From positions 1-24,313 of the IMG/VR virus record IMGVR_UViG_3300024344_000126: a stretch of 24,313 bases of DNA; one strand, written 5' to 3'. The stretch comes from a virus. The position numbers were made by a program, and so were the translations under genes. Shown here in pieces: positions 2,181 through 8,304 of this stretch. Below the pieces are notes generated by a model. It saw only the letters and a program-made list of their open reading frames with translations, had not been told where the DNA came from and searched no databases. Numbering within the stretch: position 1 is the first letter of the stretch; each line of letters begins with the position of its first letter.

Positions 2181-2201
2181 CTGGTTCCCCCCTTTCCGAA
2201 A

Positions 2202-2252
2202 AGTATACTATCTTTCCGAGTTTCTATACCCATAGAATACAATAAAACTCGG
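2202..2252 (-). promoter_or_regulatory. probable early-operon promoter region with inverted repeat
   Basis: On the minus strand a TATACT -10-like box lies at 2207-2202, about 22 bases before the GTG of the first early gene. No good -35 box is present 17 bases upstream. Just upstream lies a perfect 8-base inverted repeat, CCGAGTTT at 2216-2223 and AAACTCGG at 2245-2252, separated by 21 bases. A weaker one, CGAAG/CTTCG, lies at 2253-2271. The poor -35 and the repeat suggest a promoter that needs or is blocked by a regulator. This is inferred from layout only. Confidence 0.4.
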
Positions 2253-2290
2253 CGAAGTGCAATAATCTTCGGGAAGTTAATAATGGAAAT

Positions 2291-3352: not shown

Positions 3353-3760
3353 ATGCCGCCAGAAGCAAACACCAACTTCCAACAATTACGCGATTATATC
3401 CAGGATTGGATTGAACACAACAATACCAACTGGAACCGATTATTTGCCCTTGCCAATCTATCAAGCGGGACAATGATGTCAATTAAAAACCTTGATTATC
3501 TTGTGAGTCCGAGCATTAGAACGCTGCAACGGTTGGCCGACGCTATGGACATTGACCCCCAGATTCTATATATCAAGGCCGGTTTAATTGACGGGAATTC
3601 CGACGTATTGGGTCGGGTTCATTCTGAATACGACCTTACACCGGACGAAAAGGAACTGATCGACGCCGTTCGAAAAATGCCCCCACGCTACCGTAAAACC
3701 ATTATAGAAGGGGCCAAAAACACCGCCGAAGCCGTTGCCGAAGATGGGGATGGTGTTTAG
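3353..3760 (+). CDS. XRE-family phage repressor
   Basis: The protein is 135 residues. I chose the ATG at 3353 because GGGGAAAGT precedes it; the frame is open further upstream but that part covers the promoter. Residues about 8-65 form an XRE/HTH_26-like domain: a first helix RDYIQDWIEHNN, WNRLFALANLSSGTMMSI as the HTH, and SIRTLQRLADAMDIDP as the closing helices typical of the family. The C-terminal part (LTPDEKELIDAVRKMPPRYRKTIIEG) is a helical dimer-type tail. It lacks the S24 peptidase part of LexA/CI-type repressors, so classic RecA-driven self-cleavage is not expected. It lies directly before the integrase and opposite the leftward gene, as lysogeny repressors do. Confidence 0.8.
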   Translation: MPPEANTNFQQLRDYIQDWIEHNNTNWNRLFALANLSSGTMMSIKNLDYLVSPSIRTLQRLADAMDIDPQILYIKAGLIDGNSDVLGRVHSEYDLTPDEKELIDAVRKMPPRYRKTIIEGAKNTAEAVAEDGDGV

Positions 3761-4921
3761 ATGAAGGGCGGCGTTTACTCTGGGTATAAAGGCGCGTGGC
3801 GTATTCAATGGGACACATACCTCGACGGTGAAAGAAAAGTCAACGTCAAAACCTACAGGGGAACCAAACGAGAAGCGGAAAAGATATTAAGGGAAATAGT
3901 ATCGAGTCTCGACAACGGCACATATATCGATCCCAGCAAGATGACCGTGGGCGATTTCATCAACGAATGGCTGGCATATAAAAAACGATTCGTTAACGAC
4001 ACCCCAGGGAAGGGTTCCATAACTCCTAGCACATTTGCAGGATATAGCGATAAGCTGAAATACCCATCAGAAGATCCACTGGCCAAAATAGCCATCCAAA
4101 AGCTAACACTGGCCCATCTGGACGCCTTTTTTGAACGTCTTGAAACCCGTGCCAAGCCACTATCCACCGGGTCGATTAAACTTGTTCGGGACGTTATGCG
4201 AAACGCTTTTAGCTATGCAGTAGAGCGGGAATATATCAGGCGTAACTTACTACAGACGGTCAACATTCCCAGCATTAAACGCCGTGACGTTATTATCTGG
4301 ACCGACCAGGAAGTGGCCCGTTATATGGAATATATAAAGGAACACCCCCATTACCTAAATGATGCCACTGAACTGATACTGCACACGGGACTCCGCAGGT
4401 CTGAACTTTGCGGGCTTAAATGGGCCGATATAGACTTTGATAATGACCCGCCATATATACAGCTTGAAAGATCCCGCCATTCCAGGGAAGGCGGCGGGTT
4501 TCGGGTTGGCAGCTTGAAATCAAGTACCAGCAAGCGGATTATTGCCATGCATGATGACCTGGTCAATTTACTTCGCAGAATCCGGGGCGATCAAATATTA
4601 TTTGACCTACGCTTACCAGGAACGTGGCCCGAAGAATTAGACCGGTTTGTCATATCTAAAATGGACGGGATCCCGCCCACACCCGACGCTATCAGGAAGC
4701 AGCTGAAAAAGGTTTCCAAAATAGTTGGGCTGCCTGACATAACCGTCCACGGATTGCGCCATACTCACGCCACAAAGCTGGGCGAACTAGGCTATGGGCT
4801 GGAACGGGCGTCCCATCGCCTGGGTCATTCCAACACTAAAATAACCTATGAAACGTACACGCATTTCAGACTAGGCGAAAATGACAAAATCCTGGAAGGC
4901 TTAAACGGCTGGACCCGTTAA
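3761..4921 (+). CDS. int: tyrosine recombinase, phage integrase
   Basis: This 386-residue integrase starts at the base after the repressor stop, so the two are co-transcribed. The N-terminus (VYSGYKGAWRIQWD, about 5-50) resembles an arm-binding domain. It is followed by a SAM-like core-binding domain (MTVGDFINEWL to about 165) and the catalytic domain (about 175-386). The catalytic residues are visible: R212 in TGLRRSELCGLKW, probable K253 in SLKSSTSKR, H330 and R333 in HGLRHTHA, H356 in LGHS, and the nucleophile Y366 in ETYTH. Length and motif order match intact Tn916/lambda-type integrases of phages that use tRNA genes. The gene ends only 120 bases before the tRNA-like attP core, the usual arrangement. 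Confidence 0.95.
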   Translation: MKGGVYSGYKGAWRIQWDTYLDGERKVNVKTYRGTKREAEKILREIVSSLDNGTYIDPSKMTVGDFINEWLAYKKRFVNDTPGKGSITPSTFAGYSDKLKYPSEDPLAKIAIQKLTLAHLDAFFERLETRAKPLSTGSIKLVRDVMRNAFSYAVEREYIRRNLLQTVNIPSIKRRDVIIWTDQEVARYMEYIKEHPHYLNDATELILHTGLRRSELCGLKWADIDFDNDPPYIQLERSRHSREGGGFRVGSLKSSTSKRIIAMHDDLVNLLRRIRGDQILFDLRLPGTWPEELDRFVISKMDGIPPTPDAIRKQLKKVSKIVGLPDITVHGLRHTHATKLGELGYGLERASHRLGHSNTKITYETYTHFRLGENDKILEGLNGWTR

Positions 4922-4923
4922 AT

Positions 4924-4945
4924 AATTTGTAGCGGAATTTGTAGC
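4924..4945 (+). repeat. attP left arm: two direct repeats
   Basis: AATTTGTAGC occurs at 4924-4933 and 4936-4945, 12 bases apart, immediately after the integrase stop. The same TTTGTAGC core recurs twice in the same direction on the far side of the tRNA-like core. Direct repeats about one helical turn apart, on both flanks of the core, are the normal form of integrase arm-type sites. Confidence 0.65.
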
Positions 4946-5040
4946 AAAAAAACGATTGTTTAATCTTAGCAATCTCTTTAATGTCTACAATCTACCTTAG
5001 AAAGTGAAGATAATGTCAGATTAAATAACCTGATGTGCAG

Positions 5041-5100
5041 TTCTTGAAAACCGGTATACCCGCAAGGGTATCGTGGGTTCGAATCCCACTCCCTCCGCCA
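5041..5100 (+). other. attP: attP core: 3' half of tRNA-Ser(UGA)
   Basis: The sequence holds an anticodon loop CTTGAAA (5043-5049, anticodon TGA), and the 3' anticodon strand ACCGG. It continues with a long variable arm (ATACCC-GCAA-GGGTAT), T arm GTGGG-TTCGAAT-CCCAC, acceptor strand TCCCTCC, discriminator G and an encoded CCA. The long variable arm and anticodon identify serine. Upstream there is no D arm or 5' acceptor strand, and the 5' anticodon strand pairs at only 3 of 5 positions, so this is not a tRNA gene. It is the piece a phage carries to restore the host tRNA after integration. The crossover is likely in the anticodon loop. Confidence 0.85.
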
Positions 5101-5117
5101 CTTTTAAGTACGCAATT

Positions 5118-5168: not shown

Positions 5169-5190
5169 TTTGTAGCGAATTTGTAGCGAA
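5169..5190 (+). repeat. attP right arm: two direct repeats
   Basis: TTTGTAGCGAA occurs twice in tandem, at 5169-5179 and 5180-5190. It shares TTTGTAGC, in the same orientation, with the left-arm pair at 4924-4945. A further direct repeat, TAATGTCTA at 4979-4987 and 5149-5157, also flanks the core and could be a second protein's site. I infer integrase arm binding. Confidence 0.6.
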
Positions 5191-5251: not shown

Positions 5252-5473
5252 TTGTTCTGATGGTTTTGGCTGGGATTTTCGCTGGCGGTATCGTTCCCGC
5301 CGGTCGGCGTTGTACTTCTCGCGCTTGGCATCCCAGGACGATCGGTTGCGGCAGTTATCCGAGCAATACTGGCGCCTGGTGGTTCCTTCAAACTCGGAAC
5401 CGCACACGGTGCAGGATCCCTTCACTATTTTCCGCATACTGGCCAGCAGCTGACCAGGTGTTAATTCTTTCAT
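5240..5473 (-). CDS. small zinc-finger protein, probably leaderless
   Basis: This gene encodes 77 residues. Residues about 21-42 carry C-x2-C (CTVCGSEF) and C-x3-C (YCSDNC), a zinc-ribbon-like pair common in small phage and host proteins. A strongly basic helix follows (KREKYNADRRERYRQRK), suited to nucleic acid binding. No ribosome site stands before the ATG at 5473. Instead, a perfect TATAAT -10 box ends 7 bases before it, so the transcript should begin at or very near the ATG. It lies between attP and a rightward accessory operon. The role is unknown; regulation of the locus or of a host function is possible. Confidence 0.7.
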   Translation of the reverse strand: MKELTPGQLLASMRKIVKGSCTVCGSEFEGTTRRQYCSDNCRNRSSWDAKREKYNADRRERYRQRKSQPKPSEQAPN

Positions 5474-5480
5474 GTCGGGG

Positions 5481-5509
5481 ATTATAAACGAATATTATCA
5501 ATTTCGCAA
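5481..5509 (-). promoter_or_regulatory. leftward promoter of the zinc-finger gene
   Basis: On the minus strand TTGCGA (5509-5504), a 17-base spacer and a perfect TATAAT (5486-5481). The predicted start falls at the ATG (5473). The -35 lies inside the palindrome at 5496-5516. Confidence 0.65.
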
Positions 5510-5516
5510 ATTGATA
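5496..5516. promoter_or_regulatory. perfect 9-bp-arm palindrome, candidate operator
   Basis: TATCAATTT (5496-5504), spacer CGC, AAATTGATA (5508-5516). The two arms are exact reverse complements. It covers the -35 of the leftward promoter and stands just upstream of the rightward -35 at 5527, so a dimeric regulator bound here could control both. Which protein binds is unknown; the XRE repressor and the adjacent zinc-finger protein are candidates. Confidence 0.6.
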
Positions 5517-5526
5517 CGCAAAAGTG

Positions 5527-5555
5527 TTGACAAGTGTATTTCCATCCTTTATACT
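5527..5555 (+). promoter_or_regulatory. strong rightward promoter of the accessory operon
   Basis: A perfect TTGACA (5527-5532), a 17-base spacer and TATACT (5550-5555), one base from consensus. The expected start is near 5562, inside the inverted repeat that follows. It drives the four frames at 5607-6570. Confidence 0.8.
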
Positions 5556-5560
5556 TCCTA

Positions 5561-5584
5561 TTGTAGCAAATGGGAACGCTACAA
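5561..5584. promoter_or_regulatory. inverted repeat at the transcription start, candidate operator
   Basis: TTGTAGC (5561-5567) and GCTACAA (5578-5584) are exact reverse complements 10 bases apart, placed on the start site of the strong promoter. The heptamer is the same as in the four attP arm repeats, here in opposed orientation. A bound protein would block transcription. Confidence 0.6.
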
Positions 5585-5606: not shown

Positions 5607-5834
5607 ATGGAAACAATCAACAACAACAAACCCGCTGGGGTCTGCGGCGGGTTCCGGGTCTGGGAAAATGGGTCCATCGAAGGACCTGCGGCATACATGG
5701 CCACCTTGGACATGGACAAGATCCTGCGCCATGCCAAGGTCTTGGCGCCAGCCATGGCCGAGCAATCGGTCTACCAGGTGATCGCGCTGGCCTTGGCCAC
5801 CGACGCGGCGGCGGGACCACTTCCGGGCCGGTAG
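5607..5834 (+). CDS. unrecognised 75-residue protein, first gene of accessory operon
   Basis: The ATG at 5607 has a strong ribosome site (GAAGGAAGGTG); the open frame upstream to 5472 covers the promoter and is not used. The protein has a short polar start (METINNNKPAGVCGGF), a beta-like piece (FRVWENGSIEG) and a helical C-terminal half (MDKILRHAKVLAPAMAEQSVYQVIALALATDAA). There is no membrane segment, signal peptide or metal motif. Base composition is more G+C-rich than the two genes that follow, so the operon looks assembled from different sources. The function is unknown; its place beside attP behind a strong promoter is typical of phage morons. Confidence 0.6.
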   Translation: METINNNKPAGVCGGFRVWENGSIEGPAAYMATLDMDKILRHAKVLAPAMAEQSVYQVIALALATDAAAGPLPGR

Positions 5835-5928
5835 GCCCGACCCTTCGCCCTGATGATGGCTGGGATGGCTTCCCAGCCGAAACTTGAAAAAGTCGGCGAT
5901 AGCCAAACAATAAAAGGAAGTGAACAAG

Positions 5929-6177
5929 ATGCGAGTAACACCGGAGCAAATCAAGGACAACGGAATATCAAGAATCTACAGGGCTGGACTGTGGGAATAT
6001 TTTAGATTGAAGGATGAAGAACAAGGAATTACAGACAACTTTTTGCTGAATTATCTTAAAAATAACATGAGCAGGGAACAAGTTTACGAGTTGTTGTTAA
6101 TCACACTTGAAAGGGATGACTGCACATTAGCCGATATCAATAAACTAGCCAAGAAGGAAGGTGAACAAGATGACTAA
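5929..6177 (+). CDS. unrecognised 82-residue protein of accessory operon
   Basis: The ATG at 5929 follows AAAAGGAAG with an 8-base gap; a GTG three codons earlier lies inside that ribosome site. The protein is mostly helical and charged (VTPEQIKDNGISRIYRAGLW, NFLLNYLKNNMSREQVYELLLITLERDD), with no cysteines in a cluster and no membrane segment. Codons are A+T-rich compared with neighbouring phage genes, which hints at separate origin. The 94 bases before it contain only a small hairpin (GCTGGG/CCCAGC around 5857-5876). No function can be assigned. Confidence 0.65.
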   Translation: MRVTPEQIKDNGISRIYRAGLWEYFRLKDEEQGITDNFLLNYLKNNMSREQVYELLLITLERDDCTLADINKLAKKEGEQDD

Positions 6178-6214
6178 CGAAGATATGACAATAAAAGGAA
6201 GGGGACAGCTATGA
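6170..6214 (+). CDS. 14-codon leader peptide coupled to the next gene
   Basis: The frame MTNEDMTIKGRGQL starts at an ATG preceded by AAGGAAGGTGAACAAG, as good a ribosome site as those of the other genes in this operon. It overlaps the end of the upstream gene by 8 bases. Its stop TGA overlaps the next gene's ATG as ATGA, so ribosomes finishing here can restart. It could be a translational-coupling leader, or chance plus a ribosome site. Confidence 0.4.
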   Translation: MTNEDMTIKGRGQL

Positions 6215-6570
6215 TTTGGTACGAATGGACTTGGGAAACTTTTTCCACATCCGACCCAGAGGGAGATATTATCCAGCAAGATTGGATTCCAGCCGGAGAA
6301 CTGCACACGATTATCCAGCAATATCCCAGCATACATTTTACAGAAGATGGGCGACAGACTCGTTTAGCTTTGATCCGGCATGAAACCTCAAACGAAGAAC
6401 ACCGCTCCCACTATTGCGGAAACGAAATCGGCCGAGATTATTTTTACGTCACTATGGATGGAGAATTAGATTCTAGTGGCTTCAAAATTCCAAAGCGATT
6501 ATTGAATGAATTTGCTATGAATTCAGAATGGGCATCTAAAATGTTTGATGCTGTAGACCTTAACCAATAA
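6211..6570 (+). CDS. unrecognised 119-residue acidic protein, end of accessory operon
   Basis: The ATG at 6211 follows AAAGGAAGGGGACAGCT. The protein begins with aromatic residues (MIWYEWTWETF) and includes SIHFTEDGRQTRLALIRHETSNEE, HYCGNEIGRDYFYVTMDGEL and a helical end (PKRLLNEFAMNSEWASKMFDAVD). It is acidic, apparently soluble and small, properties shared by many phage anti-defence proteins, though that is a resemblance only. A strong terminator follows 9 bases after the stop. I recognise no family. Confidence 0.65.
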   Translation: MIWYEWTWETFSTSDPEGDIIQQDWIPAGELHTIIQQYPSIHFTEDGRQTRLALIRHETSNEEHRSHYCGNEIGRDYFYVTMDGELDSSGFKIPKRLLNEFAMNSEWASKMFDAVDLNQ

Positions 6571-6579
6571 CCAGAAAAA

Positions 6580-6607
6580 GGCCACCAATACGGTGGCCTT
6601 TCTTTTT
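6580..6607. terminator. bidirectional terminator between accessory and late operons
   Basis: GGCCACC (6580-6586), loop AATAC, GGTGGCC (6592-6598). It is followed rightward by TTTCTTTTTG and, on the minus strand, by TTTTTC. It can stop both the rightward accessory transcript and the leftward late transcript. The 120 bases between it and 6728 hold no gene I can support. Its stem is identical to the one at 2304-2322. Confidence 0.85.
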
Positions 6608-7257: not shown

Positions 7258-8304
7258 TCACCTAACATTTATCGGTCGGTCAACTAGCCCGGAAGTGGAG
7301 CCGCCGCGTATCTTTACCCCAGGGGATACGGTATAGCTGGGTACATCAATACCCGTCCCATTTCCGAATTTACTGTCCGCGTCTTGTTCCATCAAACCCG
7401 CCTTGACGTTGCTGATGTGCCATTCCCCGACACTGCAGTTCACGTTTTTGAAAATGATCTCGCCCACCTTCGGGGATCCCGTAACCTTGATAACGATACG
7501 GTCAACGGTCGAGTCCTTAGACTCGAATGTCCCTGCGCCCCGGTCTGAATTGACCACCAGTTCGGGAACCGTGGAATCCTGGGTCGGTGTTACGCTGGAA
7601 CCGTCAATGGATCCCGCAAGGTTCAGCTGGGATATCTCGGCGCCCGTTGTCACAAATGTGGGCGCACTAACATTCAATAAAGATATTTTCCCTGTGTGTA
7701 AAAAGGCAGTCGTGGCCACCCCGGTCGTGGCATATGTGATATCAACGCATCGGGCCAGGTTGGCTTTGCCCAGGCTCATGTTCTCAAATGCCAATTTATC
7801 CAGCCTGGAATTGTCCCCGAGGTTCAGCTGCAAGGTCTGACTTTGCTGGGATGGATACTCGGGGTCTGGTGGTAATTTCTCGCCGAAGATAAGCGGCAGC
7901 TGGTAGGAAGCGCCACTATCTGGCCAGATCTTGGGATTTTCGCTCGTGGTAGCTATGACGGTGGTCAATGCCAGGCTAAACCCAGCAGCTACAATTCCCA
8001 CACTTGTGGCCAGCCCACGCCATCCGCTGAGATTAAACCGGAACCGGGGCATGGGTATCCGCAGTGCTGACAAAAAGCCAATGCGCGGAACGTATGGAAT
8101 AAATATCTTGGCAAAGCGTACCTGCTTGTTTCTGACTATCAGCGCCTTATATCGCCATCCCAGGGCCAGCACGCCCACGGTAATGACCGCAGCACACGCC
8201 GCAATTACAAGCATCGACAACCATACCGCAACCGCTTCATGGGTTCCGGTGGATGTTGTAATCCAGGCAGCTATGTTACTGATAAGGGTTCCAATTGATA
8301 ACAT
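7258..8304 (-). CDS. membrane protein with two N-terminal segments and a large beta-rich outer domain
   Basis: This 348-residue protein starts at the ATG at 8304 with GAGGTGGAATA in front and overlaps the previous stop by one base. Hydrophobic segments lie at about 24-50 and 98-119. The loop between them is very basic (KALIVRNKQVRFAKIF, PMPRFRFNLSGWR), which by the positive-inside rule puts it in the cytoplasm. The last 230 residues then lie outside. That outer part is rich in short beta repeats (LQLNLGDNSRLDKLAFENMSLGKA, ISQLNLAGSIDG, VPELVVNSDR, VDRIVIKVTG, VGEIIFKNVNC), which suggests a beta-solenoid. I do not recognise the family. Possible roles are superinfection exclusion, surface change or a lysis function. 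Confidence 0.7.
   Translation of the reverse strand: MLSIGTLISNIAAWITTSTGTHEAVAVWLSMLVIAACAAVITVGVLALGWRYKALIVRNKQVRFAKIFIPYVPRIGFLSALRIPMPRFRFNLSGWRGLATSVGIVAAGFSLALTTVIATTSENPKIWPDSGASYQLPLIFGEKLPPDPEYPSQQSQTLQLNLGDNSRLDKLAFENMSLGKANLARCVDITYATTGVATTAFLHTGKISLLNVSAPTFVTTGAEISQLNLAGSIDGSSVTPTQDSTVPELVVNSDRGAGTFESKDSTVDRIVIKVTGSPKVGEIIFKNVNCSVGEWHISNVKAGLMEQDADSKFGNGTGIDVPSYTVSPGVKIRGGSTSGLVDRPINVR

What the first reader, a model, noticed from the sequence alone, without database searches (positions are those of the whole stretch)
5527..5584. Integrase-arm heptamer reused as an inverted repeat on a strong promoter
Seen: TTGTAGC and GCTACAA, 10 bases apart, sit on the start site of a TTGACA-17-TATACT promoter. 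The same heptamer occurs four times as direct repeats in attP. If one protein reads both (integrase or an accessory factor), expression of the accessory operon would be tied to integrase level or to the integration state. I have not seen this arrangement described, though it may be.
Basis: partly seen in the sequence, partly recalled or inferred. Interest (0 to 1): 0.65.

Follow-up and report, generated by a model that had tools for sequence, protein, structure and literature searches.

The report
Arm-like dyad at phage promoter, unconserved
A phage promoter carries an inverted copy of the short DNA word that its integrase probably uses at the attachment site, but the only close relative found keeps all the integrase sites and breaks this copy, so a regulatory link between the two is possible but poorly supported.

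Summary
The sequence observation is correct. A TTGACA-17-TATACT promoter (5527-5555) is followed by TTGTAGC (5561-5567) and its reverse complement (5578-5584), 10 bases apart. The same heptamer occurs as four direct repeats around a tRNA-Ser 3'-half core. The match at the right half is 12 bases long (TAATTTGTAGCG). Only one other copy exists in the window, inside a coding ORF. In Markov simulations a dyad of this heptamer appears by chance in 0.4% of windows, but a shared 11-12-mer appears in 5-13%.

The attP reading is well supported. A relative (L004) has the same four arm sites and a 97% identical integrase N-domain, with a diverged catalytic domain and a different tRNA core.

The regulatory reading is weakened by the same relative. 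It keeps the promoter, the left half and all four arm sites, but its right half is GCTAACAAC, with a base inserted inside the heptamer. Loop plus right half is the least conserved piece of the intergenic region, whereas a 21-bp palindrome upstream (5496-5516) is fully conserved. TTGTAGC dyads at promoters are no commoner in viral contigs than scrambled controls.

I favour a strong promoter of a small accessory (moron-like) operon whose start-site dyad is phage-specific, acting at most as a 5' mRNA hairpin. Integrase control is kept at about 0.18.

The parts
3761..4921 (+). tyrosine integrase gene (386 aa), N-terminal arm-binding-like domain, C-terminal catalytic domain
   Evidence: Pfam PF00589 E 1.4e-23, Arm-DNA-bind_4 weak (E 0.025); PHROG integrase E 3.4e-64
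4926..4945 (+). attP P-side arm pair, TTTGTAGC x2, 12 bp apart
   Evidence: identical in L004
5037..5100 (+). attP core: 3' half of a tRNA-Ser gene (anticodon loop, read as TGA by eye, to CCA); no complete tRNA, so the unintegrated site
   Evidence: blastn matches 5048-5107 to annotated tRNA-Ser and 5043-5100 in rhizobial plasmids; ARAGORN finds no full tRNA
5169..5187 (+). attP P'-side arm pair, TTTGTAGC x2, 11 bp apart
   Evidence: identical in L004
5240..5473 (-). small zinc-ribbon-like protein gene (77 aa, CxxC...CxxxC), divergent from the accessory operon
   Evidence: weak PHROG matches to HNH endonuclease zinc regions (E 8e-7); 79% identical in L014
5481..5509 (-). promoter-like site of the zinc-ribbon gene, TTGCGA-17-TATAAT
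   Evidence: 10 of 12
5496..5516 (.). 21-bp palindrome TATCAATTTCGCAAATTGATA (9-bp arms), overlapping the divergent promoter; fully conserved in the relative; better operator candidate than the start-site dyad
   Evidence: a >=9-bp dyad in this region arises in 0.4% of shuffles
5527..5555 (+). sigma-70-type promoter TTGACA-17-TATACT of the accessory operon
   Evidence: 11 of 12; one difference in L004
5561..5584 (.). start-site dyad TTGTAGC-N10-GCTACAA (the finding); right half in 12-bp identity with arm 1; could form a 7-bp hairpin at the mRNA 5' end
   Evidence: RNA fold -6.6 kcal/mol alone, -9.0 in the leader (z -2.8); right half broken in L004
5607..5834 (+). first gene of the accessory operon (75 aa, no family)
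   Evidence: 93% identical in L015 (same contig as L004), no other relative
5929..6177 (+). second accessory ORF (82 aa), lies in the stretch without DNA similarity to the relative
6211..6570 (+). third accessory ORF (119 aa, no family)
6577..6601 (.). bidirectional terminator-like hairpin closing the operon and facing the minus-strand structural genes

Best explanation
The region is an ordinary temperate-phage attachment module followed by a divergent promoter pair. The four TTTGTAGC direct repeats are integrase arm-type sites (well supported, not shown by binding). The TTGACA-17-TATACT promoter drives a small accessory (moron-like) operon that ends in its own terminator and runs against the structural genes (inferred from layout). 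The dyad at its start site belongs to this phage only. It most likely acts, if at all, as a 7-bp hairpin at the extreme 5' end of the transcript, of the kind known to slow mRNA decay, and not as an integrase operator. The shared heptamer would then be a coincidence or a stray arm-like sequence. If the region has an operator, the conserved palindrome at 5496-5516 is the better candidate.
For: Arms, promoter and left half are conserved in L004, but the right half is not (GCTACAAAT versus GCTAACAACT), and loop plus right half has 7 differences in 20 positions against 1 in 29 for the promoter. The L004 leader can still pair the same 7 bases around one bulge, at -3.1 kcal/mol against -9.0. A shared 11-12-mer arises in 5-13% of simulated windows. 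TTGTAGC dyads at promoters give 25 hits in viral contigs against 19 and 61 for two scrambled controls. The palindrome is unchanged in L004.
Against: A heptamer dyad matching the arms occurs in only 0.4% of simulated windows, and the 12-bp identity with arm 1 is striking. The hairpin is much weaker in the relative, so a hairpin role is no better conserved than an operator role. Only one relative was available.
Confidence: 0.5

Rival explanations
1. The integrase binds the dyad through its N-terminal arm-binding domain and represses (or roadblocks) the accessory promoter, so the operon responds to integrase level; L004 has lost the second site.
For: 12-bp identity between the right half and arm 1 and 11-bp with arm 4; dyad at the start site, where a bound protein would block transcription; 0.4% chance estimate for the pair. 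Precedent: KplE1 IntS and P4 Int repress promoters that carry arm sites (PMC2951348).
Against: Integrase N-domain (68/70 identical) and all four arms are kept in L004 while the right half is broken. The left half lacks the first T found in all four arms. attP arms are direct repeats 11-12 bp apart, the dyad is inverted with 17-bp start-to-start spacing. The promoter is not the integrase's own.
Confidence: 0.18
2. Another phage DNA-binding protein (the excisionase-like protein at 1977-2180, the XRE-type repressor at 3353-3760, or the zinc-ribbon protein) reads the dyad, and possibly attP.
For: An excisionase-family helix-turn-helix protein (weak: TIGR01764 E 0.0015, below cut-off; HTH_17 E 0.014) and a weak Cro/C1-type protein are encoded nearby. 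RdfS binds both attP and promoters (PMC11963761). In another phage (L035) the same dyad lies on the promoter of a divergent pair of Cro/C1-like genes.
Against: The heptamer is absent from the region upstream of the repressor-integrase genes and from the early region around 2180-2280. The bracket layout of the attP repeats fits integrase arms. The dyad pattern is not enriched in viral contigs. The right half is broken in L004.
Confidence: 0.14
3. The dyad has no function at all; its match with the arms is chance or a neutral stray copy.
For: Not conserved in the relative. Any 7-bp dyad in a 133-bp region of this composition arises in 17% of shuffles. With attP excluded, heptamer numbers are at expectation.
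Against: A 7-bp dyad inside the 51-nt leader arises in only 0.9% of shuffles and this exact heptamer pair in 0.4% of windows.
Confidence: 0.18

Closest known systems
KplE1 prophage IntS autoregulation (E. coli; PMC2951348), and P4 Int as cited there
   Same: A tRNA-targeting tyrosine integrase whose arm-type sites overlap a promoter; integrase binding there represses transcription (shown for KplE1, proposed here).
   Different: In KplE1 the promoter is the integrase's own and the arm sites are those of attL. Here the promoter belongs to another operon about 350 bp from the P' arms and the sites are inverted, outside attP and not conserved.
RdfS of ICEMlSymR7A (PMC11963761)
   Same: One recombination protein binds both attP and promoters of other genes.
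   Different: RdfS is an excisionase-type winged-helix protein without a clear sequence motif. Here a shared motif is present and no binding protein is known.
5'-terminal mRNA stem-loops such as ompA and papA of E. coli (references listed in PMC3997798)
   Same: A short stem at or next to the first transcribed nucleotide of a strongly expressed gene.
   Different: Predicted only; start site not mapped; the stem is weak in the relative.
attP sites of Bacteroidota-type phage integrases in L021, L028 and L033
   Same: Two pairs of TTTGTAGCG direct repeats 11 bp apart, about 220-235 bp between pairs, beside a tyrosine integrase gene.
   Different: The integrases show no tblastn similarity to the window's and no dyad at a promoter was found there.

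Membership tests
tyrosine-integrase attP with arm-type sites in a tRNA gene | tyrosine integrase gene next to the site | tested here: met
   PF00589 E 1.4e-23; gene ends 5 bp before the first arm
tyrosine-integrase attP with arm-type sites in a tRNA gene | core identical to the 3' end of a tRNA gene, with no complete tRNA | tested here: met
   tRNA-Ser match; ARAGORN finds none
tyrosine-integrase attP with arm-type sites in a tRNA gene | repeated arm sites on both sides of the core | tested here: met
   4926, 4938 and 5169, 5180; conserved in L004
tyrosine-integrase attP with arm-type sites in a tRNA gene | integrase binds the arm sites | not testable with these tools
   indirect: N-domain and arms stay constant while catalytic domain and core change
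promoter controlled by integrase arm sites (KplE1 IntS type) | arm-type sequence overlapping promoter or start site | tested here: met
   5561-5584, with the right half matching arm 1 over 12 bp
promoter controlled by integrase arm sites (KplE1 IntS type) | promoter lies within the att region and drives the integrase gene | tested here: not met
   drives 5607-5834 onward, outside attP, divergent zinc-ribbon gene between
promoter controlled by integrase arm sites (KplE1 IntS type) | sites kept in relatives that keep the integrase arm specificity | tested here: not met
   L004: arms identical, right half broken; one relative only
promoter controlled by integrase arm sites (KplE1 IntS type) | integrase lowers expression | not testable with these tools
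   needs a reporter
5'-terminal mRNA stem-loop | stable stem starting within a few nucleotides of the start site | tested here: inconclusive
   predicted -6.6 kcal/mol stem at 5561-5584; start site inferred from the -10 box only; -3.1 with a bulge in the L004 leader

The most novel reading that the evidence does not exclude
A phage integrase uses a pair of inverted arm-type sites, outside attP, as an operator that ties expression of an unrelated lysogeny-time accessory operon to integrase level.
Probability: 0.15. Interest if true: 0.6.

Novelty: new member of a known kind. Interest (0 to 1): 0.25.

Why it matters
If integrase really controlled this promoter, the recombinase would double as a regulator of accessory genes, linking cargo expression to integration; so far such control is described for the integrase's own promoter. 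As it stands, the more useful result is the natural domain swap between two close phages: same arm sites and N-domain, different tRNA core and catalytic domain. It is clean sequence evidence for which part of the integrase reads which DNA.

Tried and rejected
(1) Relatives of the first accessory protein and of the integrase in 84,980 genomes: none confirmed. (2) Relatives of the 75-aa protein in phage records: none. (3) A wider class of TTGTAGC dyad operators: 25 promoter-dyad hits looked suggestive, one of them between divergent Cro/C1-like genes (L035), but two scrambled heptamers gave 19 and 61 hits, so rejected as a general class. (4) A shared arm word as evidence of a shared integrase family: arm-pair hits in L021, L028 and L033 sit beside unrelated integrases, and the arm-pair hits in the other loci inspected (L016-L019, L023) lie inside coding ORFs. 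(5) Literature search for the arm word: nothing relevant. (6) Rfam: no riboswitch or leader; the 5046-5097 hit on the minus strand overlaps the tRNA-Ser core. (7) KplE1 attL as a check for the same arm word: TTGTAGC absent there. (9) tRNA identity of the L004 core by blastn against phage records: no match, so tRNA-Gln there is only my reading.

Full report
What is there. The window is a complete IMG/VR record of 24,313 bases from a temperate phage, with portal, head and other structural genes on the minus strand and a repressor-like gene plus a tyrosine integrase on the plus strand. Five bases after the integrase stop come TTTGTAGC at 4926 and 4938, then a tRNA-Ser 3' half (about 5037-5100), then TTTGTAGC at 5169 and 5180. 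No complete tRNA is found, so this is the unintegrated attP.

The observation. The promoter TTGACA-17-TATACT (5527-5555) and the two heptamers (5561-5567, 5578-5584) are as described. The right half is in 12-bp identity with arm 1 and 11-bp with arm 4; the left half has only the heptamer. One further copy, at 7988, is in a coding ORF.

Chance. In 1500 order-3 Markov windows the heptamer occurs 2.5 times on average, so three copies outside attP are expected. A dyad of it with 3-25 bp spacing occurs in 6 of 1500; a shared 12-mer that contains the heptamer in 73 and an 11-mer in 195. A 7-bp dyad of any sequence arises in 0.9% of shuffled 51-nt leaders and in 17% of shuffles of the 133-bp intergenic region. 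The coincidence is unusual, but it was picked out after the fact from many possible ones, and it is not decisive.

Are the repeats arm sites? Yes, by inference. In the one close relative, IMGVR_UViG_3300032006_000098 (L004, L014, L015 and L025 are the same contig), all four repeats are identical. Integrase residues 1-70 are 68/70 identical and 71-184 are 106/114, but the catalytic part 185-370 is 136/194, and the tRNA core is different; I read the L004 core as tRNA-Gln-like, but a blastn check found no match. Arms go with the N-domain and core with the catalytic domain, as expected for this integrase type (established knowledge of tyrosine integrases). Similar paired TTTGTAGCG repeats also flank attP-like regions beside unrelated integrases in L021, L028 and L033.

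Does the same protein read the promoter? The relative argues against it. Its promoter differs at one position and its left half is the same, but the right half reads GCTAACAACTAACG where the window has GCTACAAATTACG: a base is inserted inside the heptamer. Loop plus right half carries 7 differences in 20 positions, against 1 in 29 for the promoter. A factor that still reads unchanged arm sites in attP would have lost its second site here. Direction of change cannot be told from two sequences, so the site could have been gained in the window or lost in L004.

Wider search. A scan for TATAMT, 4-9 bases, TTGTAGC, 6-14 bases, GCTACAA in 2.9 million viral contigs gave 25 loci. Some look like true operators, for example between divergent Cro/C1-like genes in L035. 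None of these loci holds the 11-base arm word, and two scrambled controls gave 19 and 61 loci, so there is no enrichment. No further relative of the attP, integrase or accessory operon was found in viral, phage, plasmid or genome collections; integrases in phage records are all below 60% identity.

What the dyad most likely is. If transcription starts 6-8 bases after TATACT, the transcript begins on or next to the stem UUGUAGC-N10-GCUACAA, predicted at -9.0 kcal/mol within the leader, z -2.8. The relative keeps the same seven pairs around one bulge, at -3.1. A 5'-terminal stem that slows mRNA decay is a known device (ompA, papA; references in PMC3997798). That role is inferred, not shown, and no function is almost as likely. 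The operon (5607-6570, three small ORFs without family matches) has its own strong promoter and terminator and opposes the structural genes, which fits a moron-type accessory cassette.

A better operator candidate. Between the two divergent promoters lies a 21-bp palindrome, TATCAATTTCGCAAATTGATA (5496-5516), overlapping the zinc-ribbon gene's -35 box and spacer. It is identical in L004 although the bases next to it differ, it is found nowhere else in viral contigs, and dyads this long arise in 0.4% of shuffles.

Known precedents. Integrase repression through arm sites overlapping its own promoter is shown for KplE1 IntS and several other E. coli integrases and reported for P4 (PMC2951348); an excisionase that binds attP and other promoters is shown for RdfS (PMC11963761).

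Noticed in passing
window 3761-5100 and L004 2287-3645: Natural domain swap: two phages with the same arm sites and integrase N-domain but diverged catalytic domains and different tRNA cores (tRNA-Ser here, tRNA-Gln-like in L004).
   Followed up: partly
window 5496-5516: Perfect 21-bp palindrome conserved in the relative, between two divergent promoters; likely operator.
   Followed up: partly
window 5471-5486: The zinc-ribbon gene's -10 box ends 7 bases before its ATG and no ribosome-binding site is seen, so its transcript may be leaderless; same in L004.
   Followed up: no
L012 1775-1815: Two direct and one inverted TTTGTAGC within about 35 bp, just upstream of an unrelated integrase gene (ATG at 1846); looks like arm sites on the integrase's own promoter, as in KplE1.
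   Followed up: partly
L021 2091-2343, L028 8885-9125, L033 1813-2063: Paired TTTGTAGCG repeats 11 bp apart on both sides of attP-like regions beside tyrosine integrases without detectable similarity to the window's integrase: the same arm word in different integrase families.
   Followed up: partly
window 2195-2280: Several CTTTCCGA/CTTCGGGAAG-like repeats around a TATACT box upstream of the early minus-strand genes; possible operators of the XRE-type repressor.
   Followed up: no
L030 4413-4569: Nine TTTGTAGC copies in both orientations within about 160 bp, just downstream of a large ORF that resembles a primase/helicase by eye; looks like an iteron or operator array.
   Followed up: no
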